A program made the position numbers and the translations under genes. From Opeltia flavorubescens (lineage: Eukaryota; Ascomycota; Lecanoromycetes; Teloschistales; Teloschistaceae): a stretch of DNA of 64,000 nucleotides. Positions 36,367-58,386 of the stretch are shown piece by piece; position 1 is the first letter of the stretch, and every line of letters starts with the position of its first letter. Location of the stretch: NCBI GenBank assembly GCA_000442125.1, contig KE546978.1:496001-560000 (forward strand). The letters are read 5' to 3'. The notes beneath the pieces are model-generated. The model worked only from the letters and a program-made list of their open reading frames with translations. It ran no database searches and was not told where the DNA came from.

Positions 36367-36371
36367 TATAA
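36367..36371. repeat. Candidate 5-bp target-site duplication (left) of Gypsy element 2
   Basis: TATAA directly left of the LTR start; TATAA also follows the right LTR at 43543-43547. Being A/T-only in an AT-rich context, the match is supportive rather than conclusive. Confidence 0.5.
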
Positions 36372-36577
36372 TATTATATAGTAGATATAGGGTTATAGTA
36401 TTGTATTAAAGATAAAAAAACTATTTATTTATAGAATCTGTAACTAAATAAATATAGGCGCTAAAAGGCGCTAAACCTAATTAGGTAAATATATTTAAAA
36501 AGGCTTCTTCGAGCTACGGTAGCTATTTAGCTCTATTTATTTTATCGGCCATCTATTTATATAGTATAGCCGTAATA
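36372..36577 (-). repeat. 3' LTR of Gypsy element 2
   Basis: Direct copy of 43338-43542. Diagnostic shared segments are AATATAGGCGCTAAAAGGCG, TTATTTATAGAATCTGTAA and CTTCGAGCTA. It begins TA where the other copy has TG. Being downstream of a minus-strand pol, it is the 3' LTR. The right edge is uncertain by about 3 bp. Confidence 0.9.
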
Positions 36578-38550
36578 GATATCGGTAATAAATAAAGCTA
36601 TTAGCTTTTAATAGTAGGTTTTTCCTCGTTTATAAACGGCTTTTAAGTTTATTTTTATTTTTTAATATTAGTACTAGTATTATTAGCGGCTTTATTATAG
36701 TCTAGAGCTAGTTTCCGGTTAATACGGCGCTTATACTCTTCTACTAGTATTATAATATTATCTAAACGGTATTTAGATATCTACTAGTCGTTTTTAAACC
36801 TATAATTAACCTAATAAATAAGGTATTAAATAGAAAAATTTCTACTTTTATAGATACAACGCTTATAAAAAATTTATTCGATTTTAAATTTTTTATTATT
36901 ATTAATAATAATTAGAGGTATAGATATATAATAACGATAATAGAGATTATTATTAAGATTAGTAGTAGACTTTAAATACATTAATAATATTATATTATAA
37001 ATCTTTATAGTAGGTAGTAGTTTTAAATAGTAGGCTAATAATTTAAAATATTCGATAATTTTAAAAAAGCCTATTAGCTATTATTTAATCTTATTAAAAC
37101 TAAATTCTAATATATTATAGCTTTAATATAAATAGATTTTTATAAAATCGCTAATCTTAAAATAAACTAGTTAATAGTATATATTATAATATTCTTTTAT
37201 TTTTATTATAGCGAAGGTAATAATATTTTTAATATATATATATATAAACTAGTATTCTTTTATAGTTATAAATATAATAATATTTTATATTATAAATATA
37301 TTTATAAACTCGTTAATTTTTAAAATAATCGAATTATAGCGATAAACTATTCGTATTATAACTAGAAAAATAACTAGTTCTTTAATAAAAGCGTTAGCGG
37401 GAATTTTAAAAACTAGTATATCTTTTAATTAGATAGTTTACTTAGAGTTTAATAGATATAAAAAATCTAATATTTTATAAATTTTAAATTTAAATAATAT
37501 TTAATTAAGTATTTTAATTATAAAGTTATAGTTTATAAAATTATTTAGCGCTATTAATATTAATAAAAAAATAATAAATTACAATTTAAAGTTATCTAAT
37601 ATAATAATAAAATAGTATATAATTATTTTAATAATTTAATAAAACTATTTTAATATACTCTTTTATTATATATACTAGATAATAGAATATTTTAATTATA
37701 CTTTTAATATTTTAAATATCTAGTATTATAATTAATCAATAAATTTTCTATTATAATTCAAAATTATTATTTATAATACGCCTTAATTTAACTTTACTAG
37801 CTAATTTAATAATTATTCAACTTATTATTTACTATTTTAAATAATTTTTCTAAATATATAAATAACTACTTTAATAAATTTATTTATTATTAATATATAA
37901 TAATTATACCTTTTATACGGTTATAATAGGTTAAAATCAACTTAATAATAAATATATAAAACGATTTTATTAGGTTAAATACTAGTTATAAAATTTTATA
38001 TAAGCGGTAATAAAGTATTCAATTAATTTAGTACTATAAATAATAGTAAATAAATTTATATAGTTTTATTAATATATTATATATATAAAAGCCTTCTATT
38101 AAACGTTTATACGTATATATTTAACTAGAATAGCCTATTTTACTATATATTAACTAGAATATTTTTTTTTATATCCGTAGGTTTTACTAAATATAGGCTT
38201 TATTTATTATTATTAAAGTAAAGTAGCCTATTAATAATATAATATAATAATTTAGTAGTCTTATTATTTAATTTTTCATTAATTTTAATAGATATTTTAA
38301 TTTTAACCTAGCGATTTTTTTAGCGTATTTATCGACTAATTATTAGCGGAATTAAATTAATATTTCTATTAGGTTTATTGAAAAAGAATATATTATAAAA
38401 ATATTTATATTTAATAATTTATCTATTTTTAAAGAATATTTATAATTAATAAACTTTAATAATATATTTAAAATAATATTTATAATTTTAAATATATAAT
38501 AAATATTAAATTTAAAATATTAAAAATATTAAAAAATTTATATTAAATAA
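36578..38550 (-). pseudogene. 3' part of element 2 pol (expected integrase), not resolved
   Basis: By position between RNase H and the 3' LTR this should encode the integrase of element 2, which inserts the cDNA into the host genome. The sequence shows the same moderate AT content and RIP pattern as the rest of the element. A minus-strand reading near 37435-37460 (ILDFLYLLNSK) could be the start of the integrase core, but the metal-binding and D,D,E residues were not located. The call rests mainly on position. Confidence 0.4.
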
Positions 38551-38559
38551 AGGTTAAAT

Positions 38560-39470
38560 TTTTTTATAGATATTATATCTAGGCTTATCTAGTATTAAAT
38601 ACTAATTATTATAAAATAGTCCGTATAAATAATAATAATATATTTAATTACTTCTATTATATAATAAATCTTTTTAATTATTTAAATAATATTTATAACG
38701 TTTAACTTTATAAATTAATAGCGTATTTTAATATCTAATAATAAACGGTTAAAAAATAGAATTAATCGCTTAAATTTTTATTTAAATTTTTCGCCTATTT
38801 TATAAATAGTTTTATTTAAATTATAATAAATATAAATTATCAAACTAAATTTTTTATTAATATTTAAATCGATATATAATACTAAACTTTTATTAAAATA
38901 AACTAAAATTAATAGTAATAAAAAAAGCTTTTATAAATAATAAAATATATTAAATTCTTTAAATATAAATATTATTAGTAGATTTTAAGTAGTAGCTTTT
39001 TTATAAATATTACCTTTAATAGTAATATCGCGATTTTTATACATTTTATACTTTTAAAGTAGTTTAATAATTATTATATAATTATTAATATATTATTAAA
39101 AGTAGTTTATTAAGCTAAAATATTTTTTTAATGATTAGAATATAATTGTATATATAGAAATAAAAGTTTTAAAATCGCTTCTAGTTTATTTTTCGCTATA
39201 AAAAACTTGAAAAGATTAACCTTTTAATTTAATAGATATATAAAAGTATAGCTAATAAATAAATTTATAAATAATAAATATAGGTTTATAGTATCAAATA
39301 TACTAAAAATTTAAATAAAATATTCCGCGTATTCTACTATTAAAAAGGAGAAATAATAGAAGCTTTATAAAAAAAGCGAAATAGGTATAAAATCCTATTT
39401 ATTATCTATTATATATAAGTTAGTAAGTTATAATAACCTATTACCGGTATTTTAAATATTTTTTCTCTTT
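38560..39470 (-). pseudogene. Pol fossil (RT and RNase H) of Gypsy element 2
   Basis: Read on the minus strand. Near 39450-39410: IPVIGYYNLLTYI followed by two stops (RIP-altered Gln and Arg codons) and INRIL, matching the 'PVMGYKNSPAYVQRQIDRIL' RT block. Near 39300-39230: IFDTINLYLLFINLFISYTF. Near 39225-39160: KVNLFKFFIAKNKLEAILKL, the segment linking RT to RNase H. RNase H at about 38880-38700: LYIDLNINKKFSLIIYIYY, then RLLLDIKIRYWF-like residues. At about 38670-38600: KIYYIIEVIKYIIIIYTDYF. The chain is collinear over 900 nt with one apparent indel near the catalytic YxDD box, which I could not place. Non-functional. Confidence 0.9.
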
Positions 39471-42400
39471 AATATAAGACTATTATTAGGCGGTGGCAGT
39501 ACTATTAATTGATTTATTATTAATAGAAAAAGCTTATAAAATCTATTATAAAAAGAACTTTAATATTATAAATTTATATTAAAAATTTTATTTATAATAG
39601 AACTAGATAAATATTTAATATAATAGTTTTATTAAATTTCTAAATATTAATAATAATATAGCCTTTAAAACTTTAATTAGTTTTTTTTTATATTATAAAA
39701 TAAAGAAACGAAAATAAAATAGCTATAATAGTTTATATTATCTAACTTTACTCGTAAAATTTATTAAAAGCTTTATTAATAACTTTTTTATTATAAATAT
39801 TAACGGGGTATATATAAATTTACCCGGGTTTATAGATTTACTTCTAGTTTTCTACTAGTAGAATATTTATATATTCTAGCTCTAATATATTAATTATAGT
39901 ACCGGTATTTTATTATAAACGCGGGTAATATTTAATCGGGGTAGTTAAAGCGGTTTATTTAGTTTATATTCTAAAAATTATAAATTTTATAAAATATACT
40001 TTTTCCGTTTAGTAGTTAGTATTAATAGATAGTATAATAACGGTATTTAAAACTATAATAGTTATTATAACAGCTATTATATAGCGCTAAAAGTTTTTTA
40101 AAAACTATTTAAACTTTTATTTTAGCGTTTTAATAACTAGTTTATAACTTTTTAAACTAATTTAATAGTATTTATAAGCTTGATATTTTTAAATAGTACC
40201 TAGTTAAATTTTTATAGCTAGTTAAATAAAAAAAAATTATTTTAAATATAAATTTATTTAAATATAGAGTCTATTATATATATATAGTTTATAAAACCAT
40301 CTAATATTTTTAGTTTATATATAAAGTTATAATTTTCTAAAAGGTTTAATAAATTTTAGTATAGGTTTTTAACTTTACCGATTTTATTAATATATAGCGG
40401 TATTATAATATATTAAATATTATAGATTATAATATTTATTTTAAGACTTTTAATATTAATAGCGATTAGTACTATAATATTATAATAGGAACTAATAATT
40501 ATTTTATTAATAGATAAATATATATTAATATTTTTAAGCTTTATAATATCGATATTAATAAGTATATTAATATTTAAATTATTTATTAGATAAAACTCGT
40601 ATATAATAATAATAAACTTTATAGCCTTTTTATTAAATAAAAAGATTCTAATAATTATAAATTTAGTAATATTATATTATTTTTTACTAATACCTTTAAT
40701 ATTTATAAGAACTGGTATTTTTTAAATTATAGTATATAATAGCTATTTTAATAAAAGTTTTCGGTTAATTAAGCTTATTAGATAATCTATATTCTAATAG
40801 AAGCTATAATTTTTTATATTATATTATAGGCGAATATCTACAATTATATAATAGTACTTTTAAAAAGTAAAAACTACTATTAATATATCTTTTACAGTTA
40901 AACGAATAAATTAAAATATTTATAACGGTAGATATTTAATAATTTCTAGTTTAAAAACCTCTAGCGTATTTTTAAATAATTTAATTAATTTTAAAAAAGT
41001 CTATATTAATACTTTTAGAATATTTAGTTTAATAGTTAGTTTAATTATAATAGTTATAACTAGAAATAGTTTTTTACTATAACTAAAATATAGATAATAA
41101 TATAGGGCGTTATTTAATTTATAAATCTTATTATATTTATTATATTAGTATATTCTTATTAGTTTGGAATTAAATAATATATATTTCATTATAATAAAAT
41201 AAAATTCTATTTTATTTTTATACTAATTAGGATTTTCTATAATAGTATATAAAGTTTTATTAGGTTTTTTATCTACTATATATTTAGTTTTAATAAAGTC
41301 TAGTAATTAGTAAAAGATATTCTTATAATTTTAGTATTATTTTATTCTATTATTAAAAACCTGCTAGTTAAAAGCTTCCTATTAAAAGTAGGCTCGTTAA
41401 TTATTCGACTAGCGGCTTTTATAAAGATTTCGGTTATTATTATATTATTAATAGCTATAGCTTTATTAATTTCTAGTTTAATTTTATTATAGTAGAATAT
41501 TAACTTTAAATAGAAACTATTAATAATTATTTCAAATAGTATATTGATTATATTATATATTAAACTCGCTCTTAATTAATAGAATTTATAGGACTATAAG
41601 AAAATTCCAGTATTAGTAATTAGTAGGGAATATATTCAGTTAATTTTTTACGTATAGTTTAAATATATAGATAAATATTCTAATATATAAAAAGGTTTAT
41701 TTTATAGTAGCTAGTATACTATTACTCCTTTATATTATTTATTTTTATTTTTTTATAAAAAATTTAGTTTTAGTATTTTACGGTTTTTATTATAATTATA
41801 GATATTAAATTAATTATTCTTTTTATTTTATAAAAATTTATAAAAGGTTTTAATAGTAATTACTACGGTTTTATTTAAAATTAATATTTATAATTAAACG
41901 TTAAAGTATTGAATACTAATTATTATTTAGATATTTTTAATAAACGTTATCTTTATATTTTTTATTTTAATAATAATATTTTTAAAATATTTTAAAGGGT
42001 TTTTTTAGGCCTATATATTATTAAAAGTATAGCGTATTTATTTTAGCTGCGCTAGCGTAGTAGATAATAGCTCGCCGAAGCGAATTTTAATAAATATATA
42101 CTATAATTTAATATCTGCGCCTAATTATATAGATTTATAGGTAGCTTTTTTAATTATATTAGTATATTATATAACTACTTCGCTCTATAATTAAAAATCT
42201 AGATTATAATATACTAATAATACGTTTATTATTTTATATTTTATATTTACTCGCTATATAAAAGCGTATATATTATAATAAATATTATATAATTTTAGGG
42301 ATTCTATAAGCTTTTTATCGCTATCTAGTTAGAATAAACCAATATTATAAGCCCTTTATTACAATTTAATAACCGCTGGTATAGTTACTAAATATAATAG

Positions 42401-43337
42401 TATAGTAACTAGTTTATTTTAAAAGTTTTATATAAAAATTTCTAATAGTTAAGCTAGACGGGCGTCTATAAATAGTTACCTATTTAAAAAAGCTTACTAC
42501 TATTAAAGTAGATAACTATTACCTATAGATCTACCCTACTATTATTATTATAGTAGGATTTATATTATATCTAGCGATACTATAATACTCTCTTCTAATT
42601 CCATTTAATAAAATAGGCTGAATTTAATATTAAAAATATATATTTATTATTTAAATATATTAATAAATTCGATAATATTTATAAATTTATCGAGCTATTA
42701 TAAATTTTCTAGCGAGTTTAAAAAAAAAATATAGGTTTAAACTATTTTAGATAAAATTTATTACTAGTTTTTAAATATAAATTTAAAAACCTTCGTTTTT
42801 AAAAATTATAATAGCGTTATTCTAAAAATCGTTTATTATTTTAATAAAAATATATAAATATTCGCTTTAAGCGGTAAAATCAATAATAATAGAAACTATA
42901 TTAATTTAAATTATAGAGCTACCAGAAGATTTTTATATTAAAAAACAATATAGATTTAAAATTTTTTTATAAATATAGTTAGTATAGATTTTAAAGATTA
43001 TTATATATATTTATTTCTATTTTAAAAATTATTTAATATATTTTTAGAATATTTTAATTTAGAAAGTAATTATAATAAAAGCTGGTATAATAATAAGATT
43101 AGTTAGGTCCTTTAAATTATTATAGAAAATATCTAGAATTTTATTAAAAGAATTAAAAACTAGAATATATTATAATTAACTCTATTAACTAAATATTAGT
43201 ATAAAAGCGGTAGTTTAGTAGATAAAAAAGCGTTAGATTTACTTAAAGAATCTAATATTATATAATAACTAATAATATATATATACGGAAGTTAATAGTA
43301 TTATATTTTATATAAATTACCTTTAATTACGACTATT
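39471..43337 (-). pseudogene. 5' part of element 2 (gag and pol N-terminus), not resolved
   Basis: Lies between the 5' LTR (43338-43542) and the RT block, so on the minus strand it should hold gag, protease and the start of RT. I could not align specific residues by eye. A less mutated patch is at 39480-39500 (AGGCGGTGGCAG), and a few CG-rich patches occur at about 42050-42080 and 42440-42480. Confidence 0.45.
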
Positions 43338-43542
43338 TGTTATATAGTAGGTATAAGGTAACAGTATTATATTAAAGGTAAAGAACGATTTATTTATAGA
43401 ATCTGTAATTAAATAAATATAGGCGCTAAAAGGCGCTAAACTTAACTAGGTAAATATATTTAAAAGGGCTCCTTCGAGCTATAATAGCTATTTAGCCCTA
43501 TCTACTCTATTAACCTTCTGCCTATACGGTAAAGCCGCAATA
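43338..43542 (-). repeat. 5' LTR of Gypsy element 2
   Basis: Starts TGTTATATAGTAGG and ends GCCGCAATA on the + strand. It retains a few CA and TG (GGTAACAGTATT, GCCGCAATA) that are TA in the left LTR. Followed by TATAA, the candidate target duplication. Confidence 0.9.
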
Positions 43543-43547
43543 TATAA

Positions 43548-44055: not shown

Positions 44056-44063
44056 ATTCTAGC
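44056..44063. repeat. 8-bp target-site duplication, left (ATTCTAGC)
   Basis: ATTCTAGC immediately precedes the left terminal inverted repeat, and the identical octamer follows the right one at 58379-58386. Eight bp is the duplication length made by hAT transposases. Confidence 0.88.
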
Positions 44064-44282
44064 TAGACTGGTTAGATCGGGTCGGGTCGGGTCGGGTCGA
44101 ACCCGGGTTTTTAGCTTAGCAGTCGGTTTTAAATCGGGTTATTAGCGAGTTAGGTCGAATCTAGATTAGGTTACTAGCGAGTTAGGTCGGTTCTAAATCC
44201 TAATTCTTAGACTAAAAGTCGGGTTAGGTAATAAAATTTAAACTAATAATTTAACCTAATAATCTAACCTAACCCGACTTTT
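44064..44282. repeat. Left terminus of the hAT-like element: TIR, GGGTC repeats, hairpin
   Basis: TIR at 44064-44080, merging with about five GGGTC units (44076-44099). Then two copies of TAGCGAGTTAGGTCG 32 bp apart (44143, 44175), and a perfect 16-bp inverted repeat, AAAAGTCGGGTTAGGT at 44214-44229 and its complement at 44267-44282, enclosing a 37-nt loop. Such subterminal repeats are typical transposase-binding regions (inference). Confidence 0.8.
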
Positions 44283-46300
44283 TTATAGGTTATATTAATA
44301 AAAGTTTAAGCTTTAAAATTTAAATAAATCTTTTACTCTATTATTATTTTTAAATTATATTATTTTTAATTTTAATTTAATTATATCTACTAATAAATAA
44401 AGCTTTTATAGAAGAAGTTAAATAGTTTAAACTTTAGATAAATTTTATTACTAATATTAAAAAGAAATATATTTATTTCCTTTTTTTATAATTATAATAA
44501 ATATATAATATTATTAAATAATAATAAACTTTAAATATCTAAGCTCTCTATTTAATTTAAATATATATTATATTTAATTAATAATAATATTAAGCTAATT
44601 TATAAAATTAAAGATAAATTATATATTTTTATTTTTAATAATTACGCGTTTTATATATATTATAATAAATTAGATATCTATTATATATTAGAATTATAGT
44701 ATTAATAATATATAAAAGTAATATATTTACTTTTAAAAAATATTATTATATAAACTTCCGTAGCTTTATATAATATATTTAATATATTTAATTAAATATA
44801 ATTAATTATAAAATTTTTATAGTTATTAACCTTATAACTTTATATATTAAAAAGTAATTTTTATATTAAATAATTAAACGGTACTTTTAAAAGTAATAAT
44901 TTAATAGTTTTTTAATATTAATAAATTTTTTATAAAACGACGGTATCTGGTTGAAAATAATATTATTATAAATATTAATTTATTTCGTTATATAAATAAA
45001 ATATTATTATTCTATATTATTTTATTAATTTCTTTTTAACTAACTTCTCCGCTATAATAGATTCCTTTTTTATAACCGATTTTTATACTATAAGTAACTA
45101 CTCTTTTATTATATTTTTTATTCTATATATCCCTTTCCTTTTAAATATCTATAATTTAAAATAGTTTAAAGCGGTTTTTTTTTTTAATATATTAATTTTA
45201 TTAATTAAAAATATTTTTATTATTAAATAAACCTATATTTAATAAATTTTTACGGTTTAAAACCTGATTATTATTATATAATATATAGTTTAAAATATTT
45301 TTAAAAATATAATTACCTTTATATAAATATAAAAAGGATAAATTTTTATTATTTAATAAGTAATTATTTTTTTATAAATTTAGATAGACTAGTAAATTAT
45401 TATTTTTAGTTATATATATTTTATTATTTAAATCTATTTAAAGTTAATAAATAATAATATTTTAAATATATTACTATAATATATTACTAGTATATTTTTT
45501 TTATATTTTAATATCTAATAATTATATAAACGCGTTTTCTATTATTACTAATAAAAATACGCGGTAATTTAATTAGTAAATAAAGTAAAGGAGTAATTAG
45601 TAAAAATAAATATAATAAATATAGAACGTATAAATACTCTAATTAATTAAAAGTATGTTAAAGCTATTAAATAATATAATTCTATAATATATAAAATAAA
45701 AAAAGTATTAGAATTAATTAATTAATTAAAGTAGAATTTTATAACTAAACTTTAACTTTTAAAAAATAATTTTAAATTATATTTAAAGTTTTTATTTTAA
45801 TATTAAATTATATATATTATTATATATAAAATTTTACTTTATTATACTTAACTATTTTCTATTATATATTATTATATCTCGCTCTATTAATTTATTATTA
45901 ATATATAATATATAGCGATTTAATAATATACTATTAAAAGAAAAGAAATCGTATATATAAATAAATATAAACTTTTAAACCTAATTTAAAGTCGTATAAA
46001 AGTTTAAAAAAACTATTACTTATTAAATAGCCGATAAAAAAAAAGAAAATATTTAAATAGAATCGCCGGGTTTAAAAAAATAATTTTTAGATTATAAATA
46101 ACTTATATAATAATATATTAAAATAATATAATTTATATTTTTATTAATTACTTTTAAGCGTTATATTATAAAATAAAATAGCGTAAGTTATAAAATTAAA
46201 AAAAAATAGTTCGAGTAAAAAAAATAGTATTATTAATTAAAAAGAGGTTTATTATAATAATACTAATTTTACTAATAATATAATCTAATAATATAATAAA
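44283..46300. other. Interior of the hAT-like element, no gene recognised
   Basis: About 2 kb of RIP-degraded, A/T-rich DNA. No domain, repeat pair or RNA gene was found by reading either strand. Confidence 0.5.
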
Positions 46301-46329
46301 TATAGCCGCTAATTTTAAATAATATAAAA

Positions 46330-46740
46330 TATTTAAAATAGTAGAAGACGCGTTAGTAATAGTATTAAAATATATAACGCCGACGGTCTAGTATATTATA
46401 TAGCGCGTTATCTATAAGACGGGGCTTAATAAATTAAAGCTTACTAGTATTTAAAATTCGAAAAAAAAATAAAATAAATTTATAAAAAAGTTTAGAACCG
46501 CTATAAATATAAAAGGTAAAAAAATTCTTTTATTATATACTAGCGATAATAACGGAATAATTAAAAAAGTCGACAAGGAAATAAAAAAAATTATTAGAAG
46601 GTATACTATATAAGGAGATGCGGAGCCTTTAAAAAGCGATTTATATAGCGAAGATAATAGTAAGTAAAATAGCTTAAAAATTTAGAATATATTACTTTTA
46701 AATATTATTCTAGTATTTTTATTATTTAGTTTTTAGCTTT
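46330..46740 (+). pseudogene. Degraded reading frame of unknown function
   Basis: A stretch with unusually high G content for the region. The frame at 46516-46683 reads GKKILLLYTSDNNGIIKKVD, then KEIKKIIRRY, a TAA, GDAEPLKSDLYSEDNS. The acidic and charged composition looks like real protein rather than noise. I do not recognise a family. In RIP-degraded DNA an open frame is weak evidence, because TGA is rare and every frame fills with TAA and TAG. It could be the C-terminal part of an element-encoded protein. Confidence 0.3.
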
Positions 46741-47830
46741 ATAAATTATTACTATTAAATAATCTAAAAGCTTTTAAAGTCTAAATAAGCTTTATAAATA
46801 TTATAGTCTTTTTTTATAAAAAGAGATTAACGGGGTTTAAAAAAAAACTCGATTTATTATAAATTTAAAGGCTTTAAATAACCTTTAGTTCTTTTTTAAT
46901 AATAAAATATAAAAGTAAAATAAAGCGATTAAATTTCTTTAACTATAAAAAACGCGCGATTTAAATTTTCTTTTTTATCTAAATTAAGAACCCGTCTAGT
47001 ATTACTTATCCGATATCTTATTAAAATTAAAATCTACTTATTTAAATAATATATTAAAATTTATTATAATTTTAAAAATAAATTTTATATTTTTCCTTTA
47101 AATAATTATCTATTTTTTATAAATTACTACTAGTTAAATATCTAAAAAAACTTTAATATCTTAACTTTAATAATATATAGAAATAATATATTTATTATAG
47201 AATAAATTATATATATATACTTTAGCGGCCTTTTATAATATAATTAATATTATAGATTAAATCCGTTTACTTTTATTTAAATAATCCGCTATTAGTTTTT
47301 ATATTAATTACGTAAACGGAATTTTAAAAATAATAAAATCAGTCGATTTCTAATAGCGAATAATTTTATAAAATACCGTTTTCTCTAGTTTAATTAAACG
47401 CTTTATTTAAATACTATTAAATATATTATACTCGAATATATTACCTAGATATATTACTTTAATAACCTTATTTATATTATAACTACCTAGTATACTATTT
47501 CCTCTATATATAGCTTTTTTAATAGCTATTTTAACGGATTAATATTAAAATTATTAATAATATACTAATAAAGTATATTATCTTTAGTAGTTAGTACTAT
47601 ATTCTATATATATTAAATTATAAAAATAATAAGCGTTAAAGTAATCGTCGAAAATAGAACGATTTTATAAATAATAACTTATTTAAGGTTTTATAAATAG
47701 CCTAACCTATATTAAATTAGTTTATAGCGGAGTTATTTTTTATTTTATAAATAGTATCGATCTACTTTAAATATTTATTACTTAGGCGCTAGTATAATTT
47801 TATTATAATTACTAGTTATTATATTAGAAA
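46741..47830. other. RIP-degraded interior of the hAT-like element, nothing recognised
   Basis: Moderately AT-rich sequence with many CG and CT but almost no CA. Nothing could be assigned on either strand. Confidence 0.45.
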
Positions 47831-48660
47831 CGAGTGAGCTATAGTTAAAAAACGAGCTATAGTTAAAAAAGTTAATTAAATATATAAGAGAATAGTATAA
47901 AGTTAGGTATAATATCTATAAAAGATTTTTACTTAACGCTTAAATACGATATAATACCGTAGCGTAATTATATAGTATTAACTAGTAGAAATTATTAGTA
48001 AACCCGGAGGCGTTAGAAGAGGATAAACGATAAAAAGTAAATAAAAATTATAAATACCAAGGACTTTATAATAATATATCTAGATAATATAGACTTTTTA
48101 TATATTTATAATTTTTTAATTATATACCTTAAGTTAACTTTACGGATAAAAGTAAGCACGGAATATAAAAGTCGATAGTAGATATTCGACCTTATAAATA
48201 TAAGTTCTATAGCTCTACTATAGTAAATACTATATATATTAATTATTTTTATATAGATTAAATAGTTAATTATAGATTTAATTACCTAATAAATTCTATA
48301 ATATATAAAAAGTAACGACTTAATACTCGGTTCGGACGAAATTTACTATTAATAAAAAAATAAAATAAAAGAATTATATTATAGCGGGGATAATATTAAA
48401 ATAGTTATCTTAAACCACTTTACTATTATTTATAATAAGAGGTTAGTTATAATTAATAATAAAATAAATAAAATATACTTTTATATAAAAGATAATTATT
48501 TAAATATATAATTTACTATAAAAATTCTTTATATTAAAAGCTTCGAAAGTAGTAATAAATAGAATATACTACTAGATAATATTACTATAGTTTTATTATC
48601 TTTTTATATTATCTATAAAAACTATTTATATTTATTAAAAGGATTTTAATTTTTACTTTT
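47830..48660 (+). pseudogene. Degraded reading frame of unknown function
   Basis: The first readable block at about 47995-48030 gives NPEALEEDKR followed by a probable Trp stop, then KVNKNYKYQG. After an apparent frame change, about 48290-48510 reads KSNDLILGSDEIYY, KELYYSGDNIKIVILNHFTI and INNKINKIYFYIKD, with TAA/TAG at plausible Gln or Trp positions. The blocks are too structured to be random AT sequence, but I recognise no family. It lies about 500 bp upstream of the CenH3-like domain on the same strand, so it could belong to the same transposon gene or to a neighbour. Confidence 0.35.
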
Positions 48661-49157
48661 TTATTATATATTTACGGTTTTTAATCTATAAAGGCTTTAT
48701 AAATAATAAAATTATAATATATAATTAAAAAATTTTAGATAGTAAATTTAATATCTTTAGAGTTATTATATATAAAATTTATTATATAAATAAAGTTTTA
48801 AATAATTACGGTTTTAATATATAAAGTTAAAATATTATAATTATTTATTATTTTTTAACTTCAATACTACTCCTATTAATTTTTTATTATATTATTTTTA
48901 TATAGAGTATTTATTATTAAAAAGTATACTATATAATATATAATATATTATTATTTAAATTATAATACTAATTAAAGATAATATATTAAAATTATATATT
49001 TTAATAAACGGAGCGTTTATAGATTTTAATACTTTAAAAGTACTCTAGCTATAAAAAAAAATCTTTTTCTAGCGCGAAATTTAGTTAAAATAATATTATT
49101 AAAATAAGTATAATAATTAATTAAGTTTATTATATTAAACTAATATTTTATTAATTT

Positions 49158-49450
49158 AAATATCGCTTTTATTTTAAATTAAGTATAATCGCCCTTTAAA
49201 AAATCTATAAATTATAATATATAATAAAGTTTTTTATTTTTAAAATAATCTTCGTACGATTTATTAAAAAGATTATTCTAGATTATTATCCTAATATAGG
49301 GCTTTATATCTAGTTATAGGCTTTATATATATTTTAAAAAGCGATAGAGGCCTATATTATCACTTTCTTTAATAGTAAATATATTACTACTTTATATTAT
49401 TAAGACGAAGTTACTAATTACTAGTAAATATCGGGTTTACGGCTATTTAT
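49158..49450 (+). pseudogene. CenH3-like histone H3 fold domain, RIP-killed
   Basis: One frame, contiguous from 49158, aligns to histone H3 from the end of the N-terminal tail through the core fold. Tail end: KYRFYFKLSIIAL, for the H3 'PGTVAL' segment. Alpha-N: ten codons later KFFIFKIIFVRFIKKI, matching 'LLIRKLPFQRLVREI' without gaps. Alpha-2: I, stop, L, stop, ALYIF, stop, KAIEAYIITFF. The stops at 49215, 49311, 49317 and 49335 are TAA/TAG, and several sit where H3 proteins have conserved Gln. Two features point to centromeric H3 (CenH3/CENP-A) rather than canonical H3: the loop between the KKI and alpha-2 is two residues longer, and alpha-2 reads Q-x-Q-A-L rather than Q-S-S-A-L. CenH3 replaces H3 in centromeric nucleosomes. 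The region after alpha-2 (TTLYY, stop, DEVT) fits with one inserted residue. No start was found. Confidence 0.75.
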
Positions 49451-51800
49451 ATTAAGCGTATTACTATTTAAAAGAAAGATACGGAATTTATTTTTTCGCT
49501 TATATATAATCTAAATTATTTTAATAAGTAGTTATTTAAATATTAATTATTATAGGGTTAGCTAGAAGTTTAATAAAGGTTAACGAGACTAAAAATACGG
49601 CTTTTATAACTAGATAAATAATAATATATTATTTTTTTATATTACCTTTTTATATAATATATAATAGTTATATATTACGCGAATAGGTATAATATTAAAA
49701 AATCGCTTAATTAATTACTTCTAATATAATACCTTTTAAAAATATAATTTAAGGATATTTTTTTTATTTAATAGTATATATCTAGGTTTAAAATATTTTA
49801 AAAATATCGTCGACTAAATTATTTTTATTTTTATTACTAACTTCTTTTTTTAAGCTCGTTTCTAGTTATTTAATTATTTAGTTATTTAATTATATATTTT
49901 TAGTAAAAAAATAAAGTAAATAGCTCTTTATATATAATTAAACTATTATTATTCGCTTTATTATTAGTAAAACTATATAAAAGCTTAACCTAATTTTTAT
50001 AGTAATCGACTGCTTTTTTAAATCGGTTTTTAAATACTAGACTAGAAAATAATCCTATTAATAATAACTTTAATAATTAGGTTCTAAAAAAGATATAAAA
50101 TTAAAATTAGAAAAAAATATCTATTTAAATATTAAGTATACTATTTACGTTTCTATATTTATTATAATTACCTTATAGGTTCCGTACTTAAATCTCTATT
50201 ATAAAATTATAGTCTTTTTTTTTAATTTTAGCTTATAAAATATTCTTAAAGTTTAAAACTAGTAAATAATTAATAAAATTAAAATTTATATTATTAAAGT
50301 ATATTATTATAAACTATACGCTTAATTCTATTTTTATTTATAATAATATTAGAAGTTTAAATTATATTTATTATATTACTAAACCTTTTTTTTAATAGCT
50401 TTAAAAGCCGCGGTCTTTTTTAATTTACTATTCGCTTTTAATTATATAATAGAATTATCGTTTAAAATAGTAAATAGGCGGTAAAATATATTAATTTATT
50501 CTTTTAACCGCTATTATTAATAGTCTTTAATCCTTTTAAAAACTATATTAACTTAAAATTTTAAAAAATAAAATTTAGTAGAGATAGAGTAAATTTATTA
50601 TAGAAGATTAGTAATATTCGATTTTACCTTAACTCTTTATAAATTAGTATACCTATAAAGCTTTAAATAAGGTTATATAATTTTTATTAGAAATAATAAC
50701 CTTAATAATATCTTTTATCTAATTTTAATAGAGTTATTAAATTAAGCTATTATTTAATTATATTAGATTTAACGTCGACGTTTATTATAAACCGTAAATT
50801 ATATAATATTTAATACTTTTAATATTAAGTTCTTTTTTATCGCTATATTATAAATATAATAGCCTAATATAAAGTAATACTTAAAGTTAAAGGAGCCGAA
50901 AATTATAAATTTATAAAAAATCCGGATTTATTAATCGAATTAATATAAATTAATAGCGATAATAATAGAATAATAAATAGCGAGTATAATAATATAATTA
51001 GATAATATAAATATAAACTATATTAATTCTTAATTAATATATATTTTTAAAAATTAGTTACGCGAGAAAATAGGCTATAAAAATTAAAGATTAATAGATA
51101 AACCCTTTATTATTTTTTTAACTATTATCCTTTTTATATATTAAAATCTTTTAAACCCGTATTAATTATTTAATAATAATTATAAAAACCCGGCTAATAA
51201 TATTTAAAAATATTAGTTAGCTAAAATTAATCTAATAATAATATAAATAAATAATATACTTTAAGCTTATAATATAATTCTATTCTAATATTAATATAAA
51301 ATTCGATTTAATCGATAAAGAAGAAGGTTAATAAAAATATTATACCTATTATACCTTTAATTATATAATAAATCTTTTTTTATACAGGCGTAAATAATAG
51401 AAAAATAGATAATATATTTAATAATTAGAAAATAGAAATAAAAAGAATAGTATATATTAAAAAAATTATAAAAATAAAAGTACCTAGTCCTTTAATAATT
51501 AATAAAGGATTTTTAATTATTATTAAAGATGGTTTAATAAAAAAATTATATTTATAAACGGCTATAAACGATTTAAATATTATATTAATAGTATTTTAAA
51601 GTTAAAAATTTTAAAAAAGCGATAAATAATAGTAGGTATTAAAATATATTTATAATAACTAGAAATATTAATATTAGATTATACTATTTAATTATATAGT
51701 TTAAAATCGTTAATTAAATTAATTAAAAATTATATTTATTAAAATAATAAATATCGATATTTAAATTAACCCTTTAATAGATAATATATAAAAATAATAT
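49451..51800. other. RIP-degraded interior of the hAT-like element, nothing recognised
   Basis: The frame of the histone-like domain stays free of TGA for about 270 nt more, which may be a C-terminal extension, but this means little in RIP-degraded DNA. Other stretches (for example 50880-51000) read as charged sequence without a recognisable family. Confidence 0.45.
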
Positions 51801-51829
51801 ATTATTTATATCTATTATATCTATAGAAT

Positions 51830-52180
51830 TATTTTTTTTTATATTATTCTTCTTTTTTTTATTATTTTTTTTTTACTAGTTTTCTCTTTTTTACTAGTCT
51901 CCTTTTCTTTACTAGTCTCTTTACTACTTATTTCCTCTTAACTTTTATTTTTTCTATAAAAATTATCTTTTTTAATAGATATTATATTATCCTCTTTTAT
52001 ATAAGTTTTTAAAACCTTACCCGTTTTTTTATTAACTTTTTTTAATAACCCTTTTAGATTTTACCTATAATAGAGCGATTTAATTTTTTTATTAATAGTA
52101 TTTATAGAACTTTTAACTATATTTTTAAATACTTTTAATTTATTTATAGGATTTTCCGAGCTTATTTTTTAAAGTTCCGC
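51830..52180 (-). pseudogene. Lys/Glu-rich repeat protein fossil, unknown function
   Basis: Read on the minus strand: a frame giving LKGLLKKVNKKTGKVLKTYI, then KEDNIISIKKDNFYRKNKS, one stop, EEISSKETSKEKETSKKEK and TSKKK. The K-E-T-S-K units correspond to an 18-bp tandem repeat in DNA (TTTACTAGTCTCC core, about 51865-51935). The low-complexity charged tail suggests a nuclear or nucleic-acid-binding protein, but no domain is recognisable. The repeat itself is clear; that it was translated is inference. Confidence 0.4.
51865..51935 (+). repeat. 18-bp tandem repeat (TTTACTAGTCTCC core)
   Basis: Three to four copies of a T/C-rich unit containing ACTAGT, spaced about 18 bp apart. Encodes the KETSK motif on the minus strand. 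Confidence 0.65.
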
Positions 52181-53100
52181 GGTACTAATATAATAGATAA
52201 TTTATTAAGTGATAATATTAATAATAGGGGTTATATATTTTAAAACTTTAAGTAAATTTAATCGTCTAGATATAAATTAAATAAGTATTAAATTTAAAAA
52301 AAATAATTATTATATATTATATTTTTTATATATATTACCTTCTCGAAGGTTTTTTTAAAGGTAATTATAATAATATCTATCTCTTTATTTCTTTTTATTA
52401 ATATTTTAACCCTTAACTTTTATTTAAATAATAATACTAGGTAATAATTAATAAAGTTAGTAGTTATATTATCTAGATATATTATTATATTTATTATTTA
52501 TTATTTTTTTATCTTCTACTTCTATTTAAATTAATATTTCTAGTACTTTTTTATCTATAAACTACTTCTATTTATTTATTTATTTTAATTTTTTAAACCT
52601 TTTAAATATTATTATACAGTCGGCTTTTTACTATATATAAAGTTTAGTTTTATTTTTACTTTATTTTAACTCTCGCCTTTTACTAGCTACGGTTTTCGGG
52701 TTAATAAAATACAGTTTTAGTTTTATAAAAGAGATTATTATAATAAAAGAGATTAAATAAAACCTTTTATATAGTAGTAAAAATTTAATTAAAATAATAA
52801 GTTCAATTAATAAAATAAATCTATCCGTAGAATATTAATCTAGCTAGTTTTATAAAATTAAAAGCCTTTAATACTAAAGCGTTTACTCTAATAATTAAAG
52901 CTAAAAATATATTAAATACGCGATTAGTTCCTAAATATTTAGTAAATAATTTTATTACTAGATATTTTAAATAAATTCTATTAACTATTATTATAATTAA
53001 TATAAATAATATAATATATAATTTATAAATTATAAAGTTTAAATTTTATTTTTATATAAAAAACTATTATATTATATTAATTTAGTAAATTTTATTAATA
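52181..53100. other. RIP-degraded interior of the hAT-like element, nothing recognised
   Basis: A/T-rich with some CG. No domain, RNA gene or repeat found. Confidence 0.45.
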
Positions 53101-53101
53101 T

Positions 53102-53189
53102 CTCCTATTCTTCTATAATTTAGTAGTTATAATTTTCGGATATTTCTATTATATCCTAGAGGTCCTAGGTTTAAATCCTAATAGGAGTC
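53102..53189 (+). tRNA. Degraded tRNA-like sequence (tRNA fossil or tRNA-derived element)
   Basis: A B-box/T-loop GGTTTAAATCC (53168-53178) lies within a 5-bp CTAGG/CCTAA stem, the second arm altered by one RIP-type change. A D-loop-like TTTAGTAGTTA (53119-53129; consensus AGTGGTTA) precedes it. A perfect 6-bp stem, GGATAT with ATATCC, encloses a 7-nt loop TTCTATT (53138-53156), a good anticodon arm with U33 and anticodon CTA as it now reads. Acceptor-like arms TCTTCTA and TAGGAGT pair at six of seven positions. The D-to-anticodon spacing is several bases too long, so it is either a mutated tRNA gene, one with odd structure, or a SINE head. The original identity cannot be assigned. Confidence 0.45.
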
Positions 53190-56100
53190 TAGTATATTTA
53201 TCCTTAAAATCTGATAGCGAAAATAAAGTATAATTTTTTAAAATATTTTAATTTTAGCCGAAATTATTTAAAAGAAGTTTAATATTAGAATTATAATATA
53301 TAAAAAAAATAAATTAGTTTTTATTAAAACTATAGTCTTAAATAGTTAAATAATATATATTAATAATATATTTATAACTTTTATATTCTTTTTAAGTAAT
53401 ATATTATAGTAATATATATTAAATATACTAGTTAAAAGGATATAATTATTAAAGTTTTTATTATATTATCTTTATATTTATACTCTAAATACGTTAATTT
53501 TAACGGGGTAGTATAATATATAAATTATTAAAACTCGGCCGCTAATATTATCTCGCTCTTTAATATTTAAATAGTTATTAATAAATAAATAAACTAGAAG
53601 TTTAATCTAGCCTAATTTATTTAAAATATTTAATATATTTATTTTATCTTTTTATTAAATAAAATCTAACTCTATATCTTTTAAAACGGCCTTATAAATA
53701 TTCGCGTAATATATAATACGCTTTATAATTAGAGTTATAATCCCGGTTACTTAAATTTATAAAAAATTAGAATTATTTAATCTAGCAATTTTATATTACT
53801 TATTTAGTCTATCTACTAATAATAGAAAAATTTTAATACCTATTTAATAAAATTATTTAAAGTTTTAATTACTCTTTTTATACGATCGGTAAAAGGATTA
53901 ATAGATAATATTTAAAAGAAATTAATAGTTTATACTACTACTAATTATAATATAAAAGTAGCGTTTATATTATAATTTTTTATAGCTACTTTTTACTATA
54001 ATAAACTTTTATAAATAAACGCTAAAAATCTATTTAATATAGCGAGTAATTATATTACTTAAATATATTATTATATATTTTTTAAATAATCCTACTCTCT
54101 TTAATTTAAAACCAAGCTAATTTTTCTAATAAATACAGCTTTATAGAGTTCTTCTATTAATTTATAATTTTAAAATTAGCGATAATATAAAACTCGGTTT
54201 AATAATTAGTTATAATTTATATATAAAGGTCTATATAATTATTATACTACTAGTTACTTTATAAGCGGGAGTATATTAATTATAAAATTATATATAGATT
54301 TTTAAACTCTAGATTTATATTTTCTAAAATTAAAGAATAATAGAATAGCGGTATTATAAAAGGCTATATATATTAAATAAATTATTAGTAGAGCTTAAAT
54401 TAATACCACTAAAATTAAATTCTAGAATAGTTTAAACTACCTATAAAACCGTATATAAAATTTATAATTTATTACTTCTTTTTAATTTAGTTACTTCTAT
54501 AATTATTATTTATAGTAGCTAATAATAACGCCTATTATAAAAAGTAATATATAAGATCTAAATACCTTATAAATTTAATATATTAATAATACTTTAGTAA
54601 TCTAACCTTTAAATTCCCTTTTTAAAAGCTTTAAACCGTTAGATATAAAAAAGATAATATAGAAAAATAATATATTAAAGTATAAAATACTAATATTTTA
54701 TTAAATAAAACGCTAAGTTAAACTAGAACGCGTAGCTTTAAAAAAGATTTATTAATACTAGAAATCTATAAAAAATTTAATACTTAAAATACTATTTAGT
54801 TATTTTACTTAAAAATTTATACTAGAAATATAACCTTTTAAAGAAAAAATAGTAATTAAAATCTAAACCTCGGCTTTACTAGCGCTTTAAGAGAATACCG
54901 AAGTTTATATAATATTAATATTTAAATATAAGTATATTATTTATATATATTATTAGTAATATAAAGCTAAAAATAAATAGTTATTAATCTAATAATTATC
55001 TATATTAAACGGGTTATAATATAGTAAAAGGATATAACGTTTATTTTATACTTAGTAAAACAGATTAAATAGCTATTTTAATTAAAGAAAAAAAAATAAA
55101 AAAAAAAAAAAAAATATAGAATCTATATTTTAAAATTTAAAAAATAATATTATATTATTTCTTTATAAAACCTTTTAAAAGGATATAAAAAAATTAATTA
55201 CTATAACCTATTAACTAGCGTATTTTAGTAATAATATCTCCTAGTTTAATATTATAAAAAAGATCTTTATATAATTTATTTATCTTCTTTTATTAATAAA
55301 ATAAATCCTATAATTTACTAATCGCCTCTTCTAATCCTAGATCTATAATATAATTATTATATTTAATTATTATAATCTACTTTACGTATAATAGACTTAG
55401 TTAAACCCGGTTCTATTAATAAATTCTTTTTATAAAATTAAATACCCGCTCGATTCTTATAAAAAATATTAAATAAAAAAAAATATCTCGAGTTATCTTA
55501 ATCTAAGCTAACTTAAGAAAATTAGAAGTATTATCTCTCTAAAATTATTAGTCTAGCGTATATTTAGTAATATCTATACTAAAATATCGCTCCGTTTTTA
55601 TACGGTTCCTTTAGATACGTATAAATAATTAAAGAATACTAGCTAAAACTAGTATAGGTAGCTATATAAAATTAGTAGAATATAGATATATTACCTATAT
55701 ATATTATCTATTAAACCTTTATAGGTTAATTATTTTATATTAGAATATTAAAAGAGTTATTATAATTTTTATTAAAATACTCTAGAAATTCCTTTTAATA
55801 ATAATTTATAAAACCCCGTTAGCCGGGTTTAAATACTTTTTTAATATTTTAATTATAATATAAATTTAATTTTACTATCGGATTTAAAATATTTACTAAA
55901 TTATATATTAATCCGCCTTTTCTTTTTATATATAAATAATACTTTTTAAGTTTTTAGATTATTATCTAGTAGGCTTCTATTATAGTAGCTTTTATAGAAT
56001 AGTATAATATTTTAAAAGCTTCCTTAACTATTTTAAAATAGTTATATATTTTAATAAAAACGCGGAATGTTAAATAAATATTTATATTAATAATCCGTAA

Positions 56101-56643
56101 AATAGTAAATATAAAATTATAAAAAGAACGAAGTATAATATTAAAAAGTAAAAAGGATTACTAATTATTAATATTAAGATAAATTTTATTAAACCTATTA
56201 TCCGAACCCCTTTACTTATTAATATAGGTAGTAAAAACTTTATATAATTAATATACTTAACGGATTATTAAATATATCGAGTTCTATTAAATATAAATAT
56301 TTTAAAGTAGATTTTTTAATCTATAATTTAGATTTTTTTCTAATTAAAGTTCTTTAAAACGTAATTTACGCTAAAAAAATATATTTATATAAACGGTAAG
56401 CGCGTAAATCTAAACTACTATTAATAACTTAACTTTTTTTAATATATTACTTTATTATATTACCTTTTTAACTACGCTTAATAACCCTATACTAAAATTA
56501 CTAAAATATTTATCTTTTAAATCCTAGTTTAAAGTATTATTTATTATTTAAAATCTAATCGCTATAATAAAATTTTAGACTATAAAATTAATAATATAGG
56601 TTAAATATAGTAAAAAGTTTTTAATTTTTTCCTATTTTTAATT
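53190..56643. other. RIP-degraded interior of the hAT-like element; unrecognised minus-strand frames
   Basis: On the minus strand, about 54160-54030 reads IKLYLLEKLAWF, stop, IKESRII, stop, KIYNNIFK, and about 53905-53860 reads INPFTDRIKRVIKTLNNFIK. These look like protein remnants and could be transposase, but I cannot match them to a family. A-rich runs occur at 55088-55114. No LTR pair was found inside. Confidence 0.4.
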
Positions 56644-56651
56644 AAGTCGGG
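56644..56651. repeat. 8-bp target-site duplication, left (AAGTCGGG)
   Basis: AAGTCGGG directly left of the miniature element; identical octamer at 56823-56830. Confidence 0.82.
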
Positions 56652-56822
56652 CCGACTGGTCGATTTCTCGGGTTATAGGGTCAAAATCGTAACCCGGAAC
56701 CGACTTTCTAGCTGTATTAGGCTAGTCTGGCGCTAACGCTAACGGCTTTTAGTAATTTGCTAGCTATTTTAGGTTAGATTTTTCTGGGCGAATCCTTGGC
56801 GGGTACCCGACTGACCACTCTA
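56652..56822. mobile_element. 171-bp miniature hAT element, not RIP-mutated
   Basis: Bounded by a perfect 8-bp duplication (AAGTCGGG). Ends are CCGACTGGTCGATT on the left and, on the minus strand, TAGAGTGGTCAGTCGGG on the right; both share the ACTGGTC/AGTGGTC core with the ends of the 14.3-kb element around it. The sequence keeps many TG and CA dinucleotides (CTGTATT, TAGTCTGGCG, TTTCTGGGCG, CCTTGGCGGG), in stark contrast to its surroundings. It has no coding capacity and must be moved by a hAT transposase in trans. It either inserted after the last RIP cycle or is too short to be recognised by RIP. Confidence 0.8.
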
Positions 56823-56830
56823 AAGTCGGG

Positions 56831-58160
56831 AAAGTTTATCTTTTAGTTCTACCTTTAAAATACTATTAAAACTTATATTATTAGTAATAATATTAAAAAG
56901 TTTTCGCCTAATATTATAGTAATTAAAAAGAGTTAATATTTTATTATATTATATTTTACTAGAATAATTAATATTTAATAATACGAATTTAAGTAACTAT
57001 TTTTAGAATTAATATTAGTTATTAATCTAATATACTAGTACTCTTAGGTATAAAATTTTTTAAAAACTAGATTAAGTATCTATTATAAAAGAAATTTAAT
57101 TTATATTATATAATTTATTATAGATCTTCTTATAAATACTAATATAATTCTTTTTAATTTAATTAGTTAAAATTATTTAACTAGCGAGCTATATATTAAA
57201 ATAGAGTATTTAAAAAAAATTTTAGAAAATAGGATTATCGATAGTTTATAAAGGGAGGTCGAGCTATATAAAGGTTTTATATAACTAGCAGTTTTAAGTC
57301 TTTTAATCGAAATCCCCGCTATTATCTATATAACTTTTCTTCTAGGATAATATATTAATAATATATTATTTTTAAATATTACTTAGTATATTTATACGTT
57401 TAAAACTCGTTTTAATATTTAACTAGGAATATAATTATTTATATCTTTAATAAGAAGTAGAAATTAAATACTTATTTATAGTTAAAGTAGTCGACGAGTT
57501 AAAAATAATAAAATAATTAAAATTTTTAAAATAATTTTTATAAATAACTATAGATTTATTATTAAAAACCGAAGTAGTTTACTTAAATTTAAACTAGAAT
57601 TTCGAATAATTTTTACTTAAATTTTTTTTTTTTTATATCTATAAAAAATATACTAATTTATTAAAAGTATCTTTAATTTAAATTATTATAGGAATAGTTA
57701 ATTACTAAATTTTAAAGGCTTTATAAATACTACTACTCTATTAAATATATTCGCCCTTAGCCTAAAAAATTAAAATTAGGTATTAGAATTAAATTTCTTC
57801 TATTTTTATCTAAATTTACTCTCGTTTCTCCTAAAATAAATATATTAGCGTAGTAAATATACTAGTATCTTAATTTAGAAACTAACTCGTAGATTAATTT
57901 ATATAAATATTATTAATTAGCGAATTTAATATTAATTTTTTACTAGGTTTATTTATATCGTTCCTTTTATAAAAGGGACCCGGTTAATTTTATAGTAATA
58001 GATTAATAGTATTATTATTAGATATAGTTTTATTTTAATATAGTAGTAATATAATAAAGTAATATAATAAGGTAATATAAAAGTAATAGTTATAGTTATT
58101 AATACGATTTTAACTATAATAAAGAAAACTAGTATTATAAGACTTATATTATAGGTTATA
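56831..58160. other. RIP-degraded interior of the hAT-like element, nothing recognised
   Basis: A/T-rich DNA with some CG. Near 58037-58085 are short direct repeats of GTAATATAATAA. No domain recognised. Confidence 0.45.
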
Positions 58161-58378
58161 TTATTAAATTTAAATAAGTTTTTAACGGGTTAATTAGGTT
58201 TAATTTAATTTAAAACTAATTTATTAAAAATCTGACTTAATTAAAACTCGACCCGTTAAAAATCTAACCCGATTAGAATCTAACCCGATTTAAATCGGGT
58301 TCTATAAATTTTTAACCCGACTCGGGTCGGTTTCGGGTCCAGATTTTATCTAGAAAACCCGGCCGACTGACCAGTCTA
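58161..58378. repeat. Right terminus of the hAT-like element: TIR and AACCCGA subterminal repeats
   Basis: TIR CCGACTGACCAGTCTA at 58363-58378. Inside it are repeated AATCTAACCCGATT units (about 58261-58291), a perfect 20-bp palindrome AACCCGATTTAAATCGGGTT at 58282-58301, and ACCCGACTCGGGTCGG. These mirror the GGGTCGGG and AAATCGGGTT motifs at the left end. Confidence 0.8.
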
Positions 58379-58386
58379 ATTCTAGC
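58379..58386. repeat. 8-bp target-site duplication, right (ATTCTAGC)
   Basis: Identical to 44056-44063 and directly abuts the right TIR, showing that the two ends belong to one insertion event. Confidence 0.88.

What the first reader, a model, noticed from the sequence alone, without database searches (positions are those of the whole stretch)
49158..49450. Fossil CenH3/CENP-A-like histone domain inside a hAT-like transposon
A single 98-codon frame aligns almost without gaps to the histone H3 fold, from the 'PGTVAL' segment to alpha-2, with RIP-made stops at conserved Gln positions. Two CenH3 hallmarks are visible: loop 1 is two residues longer than in canonical H3, and alpha-2 reads Q-x-Q-A-L. 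The domain sits within a 14.3-kb element defined by TIRs and an 8-bp duplication. A transposon carrying a centromere-type histone would be remarkable: it could be captured cargo, a targeting device towards centromeric chromatin, or a duplicated host gene destroyed by RIP. I know of no described hAT element with such cargo, but I could not search.
Basis: partly seen in the sequence, partly recalled or inferred. Interest (0 to 1): 0.9.

Follow-up and report, generated by a model that had tools for sequence, protein, structure and literature searches.

The report
Dead fungal transposon with four histones
A mutation-riddled fungal jumping gene carries four different relatives of the DNA-packaging protein histone H3; elements of this kind were already known from other fungi, but this one has more such genes, and they look like long-kept genes of the element rather than a recent grab.

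Summary
The segment is one of four histone-H3-family loci (two per strand) in a 14.3-kb RIP-killed element (44064-58378) with inverted ends and 8-bp target duplications. Unrepaired read-throughs (4 loci x 3 of 11 copies), joined across one inferred intron, match solved H3 chains at E = 7e-18; 12 of 12 match Pfam Histone at E <= 1. A hAT dimerisation domain lies on the minus strand near 55.4 kb (2 of 6 copies match PF05699, best E 0.0062). About 24 copies exist. The proteins are H3-like, not clearly CenH3: tests disagree, but the RIP-proof comparison puts all four nearer host H3. hAT elements with H3-like genes are already published (Pyrenophora 2013; Pseudocercospora, Cercospora, Sphaerulina 2019). 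New here: four diverged genes per element; a 53-54-nt interruption at one shared place, absent from host H3 and CenH3; and differences concentrated at third codon positions (72, 43, 173 of 447 at positions 1, 2, 3). These favour long residence under protein-level selection over recent capture. What the proteins did is inference.

The parts
44064..58378 (.). RIP-saturated hAT-type transposon, 14,315 bp in the window copy; inverted ends read TAGACTGGT inward
   Evidence: shared block in 10 fetched copies, ends and duplications; GC 16.5%; CpA+TpG 43 in the element
44056..44063 (.). left copy of the 8-bp target duplication ATTCTAGC
58379..58386 (.). right copy of the 8-bp target duplication ATTCTAGC
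44731..44971 (-). H3-like locus A, exon 1 (loop 1 about 10 residues longer than host H3)
   Evidence: present in 10 of 11 copies
44678..44730 (-). locus A inferred intron, 53 nt
44591..44677 (-). locus A exon 2 (alpha-3 part)
   Evidence: H3 17.6, CenH3 15.9
47196..47400 (-). H3-like locus B, exon 1 (loop 1 +1)
   Evidence: seen in 11 of 11 copies, with masked bases in one
47142..47195 (-). locus B inferred intron, 54 nt
47070..47141 (-). locus B exon 2
   Evidence: H3 16.5
49170..49374 (+).
   Evidence: 11 of 11 copies, by selection
49375..49427 (+). locus C inferred intron, 53 nt
49428..49490 (+). locus C exon 2
   Evidence: H3 17.5
54711..54927 (+). H3-like locus D, exon 1 (loop 1 +5)
   Evidence: 8 of 11 copies
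54928..54980 (+). locus D inferred intron, 53 nt; no copy keeps GT at the start
54981..55058 (+). locus D exon 2
   Evidence: H3 17.3
55331..55589 (-). hAT C-terminal dimerisation domain (transposase end)
   Evidence: RIP-aware score 19.5 and 20.5 with two recalled consensus strings; shuffle maxima 17.0 of 150 and 14.6 of 100; 2 of 6 copies match PF05699, best E 0.0062

Best explanation
The segment is an exon of one of four histone-H3-like genes resident in a large hAT DNA transposon of a filamentous fungus; the copies examined are all ruined by RIP. Shown: hAT-type ends with 8-bp target duplications, a hAT dimerisation domain, four diverged H3-family loci (A to D) at fixed places, a shared 53-54-nt interruption with a frame change in three of the four, and differences between the four concentrated at third codon positions. 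Inferred: the genes were spliced and translated before RIP, arose by duplication inside the hAT lineage from one H3-like ancestor, and were kept by selection because the element used them. The mechanism I think most likely (about 0.35, inference only): the variants paired with host H4 and entered nucleosomes on the element or its target, lacking the usual regulatory H3 tail, and so blunted silencing of the element or biased it towards heterochromatin. They are now inert.
For: Four peaks score 32.4-41.4 against host H3 and CenH3; shuffles reach at most 17.0 and 19.7 of 150 each, reversed targets 12.0 and 12.9; H2A and H4 pieces 11.7 and 11.3. Exon-2 peaks 16.5-17.6 at all four loci, next best 8.9, shuffle maximum 11.7 of 100. 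Unrepaired spliced read-throughs: 12 of 12 match Pfam Histone, PDB H3 at 7e-18; at the four loci the 17 non-histone frames of 24 give 1.0 bit or less. Interruption of 53, 54, 53, 53 nt at one place; host H3 and CenH3 exons run through it. R/Y differences 72, 43, 173 of 447 at codon positions 1, 2, 3 over six pairs, shifted controls 0.45-0.60. A to D form one side of a split against host H3 plus CenH3 in 83% of 500 bootstraps. No host H3 tail found: best 10.2, shuffle mean 11.1, maximum 15.2 of 100.
Against: The interruption lacks clean splice signals throughout: no D copy (0 of 8) keeps GT at the start, none of 11 B copies shows the branch motifs I looked for, and the ends read TAA rather than TAG in 19 of 40 copy-loci. 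Its first 30 nt are unusually conserved, which an ordinary intron would not need. The selection signal could have been inherited from host or foreign genes before capture; pairs are not independent, and the alignment was made at protein level. The split rests on six sequences and 73 codons. No intact relative or transcript was seen: two protein-collection searches found none. The hAT catalytic core was not found and the dimerisation segment had no PDB match. Nothing tests what the proteins did.
Confidence: 0.6

Rival explanations
1. Passive cargo: a host or foreign H3-type gene or transcript was captured by a hAT element, duplicated inside it, amplified and killed by RIP, with no role for the element. 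This is how Dhillon 2019 reads the Pseudocercospora case.
For: Published reading for similar elements. All copies examined here are dead. Third-position differences could be inherited from genes that diverged under selection before capture.
Against: Four diverged loci share one interruption that host H3 and CenH3 lack and group together (83% of 500 bootstraps), which points to divergence within one lineage. No H3 tail was found. The host H3 protein is not the near-identical source expected for recent capture.
Confidence: 0.3
2. CenH3 targeting device: the element carries true centromeric histones that steer it to, or feed on, centromeric chromatin.
For: Longer loop 1 in all four loci. Unspliced RIP-aware scores prefer host CenH3 in A, C and D (39.7 against 32.4, 39.1 against 34.2, 41.4 against 33.9), spliced scores slightly in C and D (49.2 against 48.6, 52.4 against 49.2), and a plain profile in A (44.5 against 38.4). 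16 of 25 copies lie within 50 kb of a repeat that mostly forms one cluster per contig, against 10 of 40 for a dispersed repeat.
Against: The host CenH3 target is longer, which helps it in local scores. R/Y distances are nearer host H3 in 4 of 4, though CenH3 evolves faster, which also pushes this way. Log-likelihood at differing sites is -2.3, -1.6, -0.6 and -4.9. Plain profiles prefer H3 in B, C and D. The 60 of 176 PDB matches shown carry H3-type names, none CENP-A. Two contigs have copies 662 and 697 kb apart, both repeat lists were capped, and no centromere map exists here.
Confidence: 0.08
3. Chance: low-complexity AT-rich sequence mimics a histone frame.
For: Pfam scans of long unrepaired frames found nothing, in the window copy and in one other copy.
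Against: E 7e-18 and 12 of 12 Pfam matches for short spliced read-throughs; shuffle, reversed-target and other-frame controls. The long-frame scans also missed these same histones, so their silence says little.
Confidence: 0.01

Closest known systems
RIP-inactivated hAT elements with H3-like sequences in Pseudocercospora fijiensis and five other Mycosphaerellaceae (Dhillon et al. 2019, PMC6710886; abstract, parts 1-3 of 7 of the text, part 1 of 2 of the Discussion, and passages seen)
   Same: hAT element with inverted ends and 8-bp target duplication, H3-like sequences inside, RIP, location in AT-rich blocks, different lengths of the H3-like copies within one element (a 16-residue insertion in the second)
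   Different: About 9.5 kb with one or two H3-like sequences; here 14.3 kb with four. They report intronless capture of host H3 and the words CenH3, CENP and centromer do not occur in the main text; here a shared interruption and diverged H3-like paralogues. Sequence relation untested.
hAT element with H3L gene in Pyrenophora tritici-repentis (Manning et al. 2013, PMC3538342; abstract and passages seen)
   Same: hAT transposase plus an H3-like gene that matches neither H3 nor CenH3 completely
   Different: 5.6 kb (and a 2.3-kb form), one H3L gene, copies largely intact and with ESTs; here four loci and all examined copies ruined. Sequence relation untested.
Host canonical H3 (L009) and host CenH3 (L010, minus strand)
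   Same: Histone-fold core alignable over about 73 codons outside loop 1
   Different: Host exons lack the interruption; the H3 tail was not found in the element
Histones encoded by DNA viruses (review PMC9145170, seen only as a search listing)
   Same: Histones carried by a parasitic genome
   Different: Viruses, not a DNA transposon; not compared here

Membership tests
hAT transposon superfamily | 8-bp target site duplication | tested here: met
   7 of 11 copies with both ends; 6 exact, 1 with one mismatch
hAT transposon superfamily | short terminal inverted repeats | tested here: met
   TAGACTGGT on both ends of the window copy, RIP variants in other copies
hAT transposon superfamily | transposase with C-terminal dimerisation domain | tested here: met
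   2 of 6 copies match PF05699 at E <= 10, best 0.0062; RIP-aware 19.5 and 20.5 above all shuffles. Against: no PDB match, genome-wide family search missed the element
hAT transposon superfamily | catalytic RNase-H-like core | not tested
   no reference sequence usable in the RIP-aware scan; long-frame Pfam scans are insensitive here
Histone H3 family (H3 fold) | alpha-1, alpha-2 and alpha-3 with the KRVTI segment | tested here: met
   12 of 12 Pfam Histone at E <= 1, best 3e-9; PDB H3 7e-18; exon-2 scores 16.5-17.6
Canonical histone H3 | conserved N-terminal tail | tested here: not met
   host tail scores 10.2, below the shuffle mean of 11.1; only part of the tail was used as target
CenH3 / CENP-A | loop 1 longer than H3 | tested here: met
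   about +10, +1, +2, +5 residues; host CenH3 is +4
CenH3 / CENP-A | core sequence closer to CenH3 than to H3 | tested here: inconclusive
   for: unspliced scores in A, C, D, spliced in C, D, profile in A. Against: R/Y distances in 4 of 4, differing-site likelihood in 4 of 4, profile in B, C, D
CenH3 / CENP-A | deposition at centromeres | not testable with these tools
   no expression or ChIP; clustering of copies is only suggestive
Fungal hAT with H3-like gene (Manning 2013, Dhillon 2019) | H3-like gene between the inverted ends of a hAT element, in multiple copies | tested here: met
Fungal hAT with H3-like gene (Manning 2013, Dhillon 2019) | sequence homology to those published elements | not testable with these tools

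The most novel reading that the evidence does not exclude
A lineage of fungal hAT transposons encodes its own small family of H3 variants, spliced, without the usual H3 tail and with different loop-1 lengths, diversified and kept by selection, and uses variant nucleosomes as a regular part of its life cycle (against silencing, or to choose sites). The H3 captures reported in other fungi would then be members of this lineage rather than separate accidents, and the 16-residue insertion reported in P. fijiensis might be an unrecognised intron of the kind seen here.
Probability: 0.33. Interest if true: 0.78.

Novelty: new variant of a known kind. Interest (0 to 1): 0.5.

Why it matters
Transposon-borne histones would be a direct way for a mobile element to change the chromatin that silences it. 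The published fungal cases were discussed as capture of a housekeeping gene. Four diverged, apparently selected genes in one element, with an interruption of their own, make the alternative (a resident, useful gene family) testable by sequence comparison and by expressing one intact relative.

Tried and rejected
CenH3 reading: tested, mixed, not established. Chance: rejected. Pfam scans of long six-frame read-throughs of the window copy and of most of one further copy listed nothing, but they also missed the proven histones, so they are no evidence about other genes. Genome search for PF05699: one sub-threshold hit elsewhere, none in the element. Profile of the hAT segment against PDB: nothing. 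A first search for the element's ends in the window alone, using generic rules, did not list the true ends. Papers: 8 of 10 searches used; their listings show no transposon said to carry CenH3, and two papers on H3-carrying hAT elements. The organism was not identified.

The RIP-aware score sums over possible ancestral codons and writes none out; the R/Y strings hold only purine or pyrimidine.

Full report
What is there. The window is C14:496001-560000 of a 34.4-Mb genome in 23 contigs; its 1-kb bins have 8-25% GC. BLAST of the window against them shows a shared block from 44064 to about 58378. Its ends read TAGACTGGT inward in the window copy. The flanks are duplicated by 8 bp in 7 of 11 copies, 6 exactly and 1 with one C/T mismatch; in the other four at least one end was not found. 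Against the window copy, transitions are 12.5-13.4% and transversions 0.3-2.2%, and CpA plus TpG total 43 in the element: a RIP-saturated family.

Histone identity. I scored frames with a model that sums over the ancestral codons that C-to-T and G-to-A change could have started from. 150 shuffles of each target reach at most 17.0 and 19.7; H2A and H4 pieces reach 11.7 and 11.3. With the window copy alone over the whole 64 kb the same four are the top four hits for both targets: 23.7-28.3 for H3 with the next at 14.4, and 28.4-33.0 for CenH3 with the next at 16.0. The alpha-3 part of each lies in a second peak about 50 nt further on, in another frame for A, C and D and in the same frame for B: 16.5-17.6 for H3, next best 8.9, shuffle maximum 11.7 of 100. 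Joining across that gap lifts scores to 44-52. Plain HMMER on unrepaired spliced read-throughs with X at stops (4 loci x 3 of 11 copies) agrees: 12 of 12 match Pfam Histone at E <= 1, best 3e-9, and their profile hits H3 chains in the PDB at 7e-18; the 60 of 176 matches shown carry H3-type names. At the four loci the four exon-1 frames give 22-30 bits, three further exon-2 frames 9-12, and the other 17 of 24 frames 1.0 or less.

H3 or CenH3. Loop 1 is longer than host H3 in all four (about +10, +1, +2, +5), a CenH3-like trait. Scores disagree. Unspliced RIP-aware scores prefer CenH3 in A, C and D and H3 in B; the CenH3 target is longer. Spliced totals for H3 and CenH3 are A 48.0 and 47.7, B 49.6 and 44.3, C 48.6 and 49.2, D 49.2 and 52.4. 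The log-likelihood at sites where the host proteins differ is -2.3, -1.6, -0.6 and -4.9, slightly towards H3. Per-locus profiles prefer host H3 in B, C and D and host CenH3 in A. In R/Y coding, which RIP cannot alter, differences to host H3 and host CenH3 at positions 1+2 are A 16 and 23, B 24 and 33, C 18 and 21, D 24 and 33 of 146; the four stand against H3 plus CenH3 in 83% of 500 bootstraps. Faster evolution of CenH3 would push the same way. The host H3 tail was not found. I call them H3-like, which is also how Manning 2013 describes the Pyrenophora protein.

Gene structure and selection. The gap is 53, 54, 53 and 53 nt in A to D at the same place (the Asp codon of FEDTNL), and the open host H3 and CenH3 exons run through that place. 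I read it as an intron. For: GTAAAT starts it in 5 of 10 A copies, 5 of 11 B and 5 of 11 C, and nearly all the rest read ATAAAT, its RIP form; the joint gives a histone of exact length. Against: no D copy keeps GT (0 of 8; ATAAGT in 3, ATAAAT in 4, ATTAAT in 1), the end reads TAG in 21 and TAA in 19 of 40 copy-loci, and the branch motifs I looked for are absent in 11 of 11 B copies. A puzzle remains: nucleotides 7-30 of the gap differ in R/Y at only 13 of 144 comparisons over six pairs, the last 20 nt at 43 of 120. In the exons R/Y differences over six pairs are 72, 43 and 173 of 447 at positions 1, 2 and 3, loop 1 left out; codon-shifted controls are 0.45-0.60. So proteins were constrained while third positions drifted far. 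The pairs are not independent, the alignment was made at protein level, and the constraint may predate capture.

The transposon. A hAT dimerisation domain sits on the minus strand at 55.6-55.3 kb. Two recalled consensus strings score 19.5 and 20.5 against shuffle maxima of 17.0 of 150 and 14.6 of 100, and 2 of 6 unrepaired copies match PF05699, best E 0.0062. A PDB search with that segment found nothing and the genome-wide family search missed it. The catalytic core was not located. The histone loci are fixed parts: A in 10, B in 11, C in 11 (by selection) and D in 8 of 11 copies. Independent genome searches list 25 of 54 rows for D at 83% or more over 150 bases or more, and 27 of 81 for B at 81% or more over 100 bases or more, some rows being pieces of one copy.

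Where the copies lie. 16 of 25 places lie within 50 kb of a member of another repeat taken from 37.5 kb, which mostly forms one cluster per contig, against 10 of 40 for a dispersed repeat from 1.5 kb. On two contigs, though, copies lie 662 and 697 kb apart. Both repeat lists were capped at 40. This fits accumulation in a main AT-rich block per chromosome, possibly the centromere, but survival alone could produce it and no centromere map exists here.

Known or new. Manning 2013 (PMC3538342; abstract and passages) describes a 5.6-kb hAT with one H3-like gene in Pyrenophora tritici-repentis. Dhillon 2019 (PMC6710886; abstract, parts 1-3 of 7, Discussion part 1 of 2, passages) describes about 9.5-kb RIP-killed hAT elements with one or two H3-like sequences in P. 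fijiensis, and similar events in five other Mycosphaerellaceae, read as intronless transcript capture. A 2026 paper repeats the capture reading in a sentence (PMC13041039, passages). Our element is a new variant of a known kind: larger, with four diverged genes, a shared interruption and a signature of protein-level constraint. Those points favour a resident gene family over a recent capture. From there to what the proteins did is inference; my preferred mechanism, variant nucleosomes that help the element against silencing or in choosing sites, has about one chance in three.

Noticed in passing
56652-56822: A 171-bp, less AT-rich piece flanked by the 8-bp repeat AAGTCGGG (56644-56651 and 56823-56830), with ends CCGACTGGTC and GACCACTCTA; absent from 7 of 7 other copies that cover the place. 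It looks like a small non-autonomous hAT-type insertion into the dead element.
   Followed up: partly
44678-44730, 47142-47195, 49375-49427, 54928-54980: The first 30 nt of the inferred introns are nearly invariant in purine/pyrimidine across the four paralogues while the rest has drifted; unexplained.
   Followed up: partly
36358-43544: A neighbouring repeat of about 7 kb, with at least 40 places scored of 330 candidates for its 37500-37900 part, mostly one cluster per contig. Its kind was not determined.
   Followed up: partly
9001-17000 and 31001-35000: Stretches with mostly 8-13% GC, lower than most of the window.
   Followed up: no
L010 (C12:505540-505938, minus strand): Host CenH3 gene with an interruption between SRLV and REI and a loop 1 four residues longer than host H3; host H3 is in L009 (C9:547619).
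   Followed up: partly
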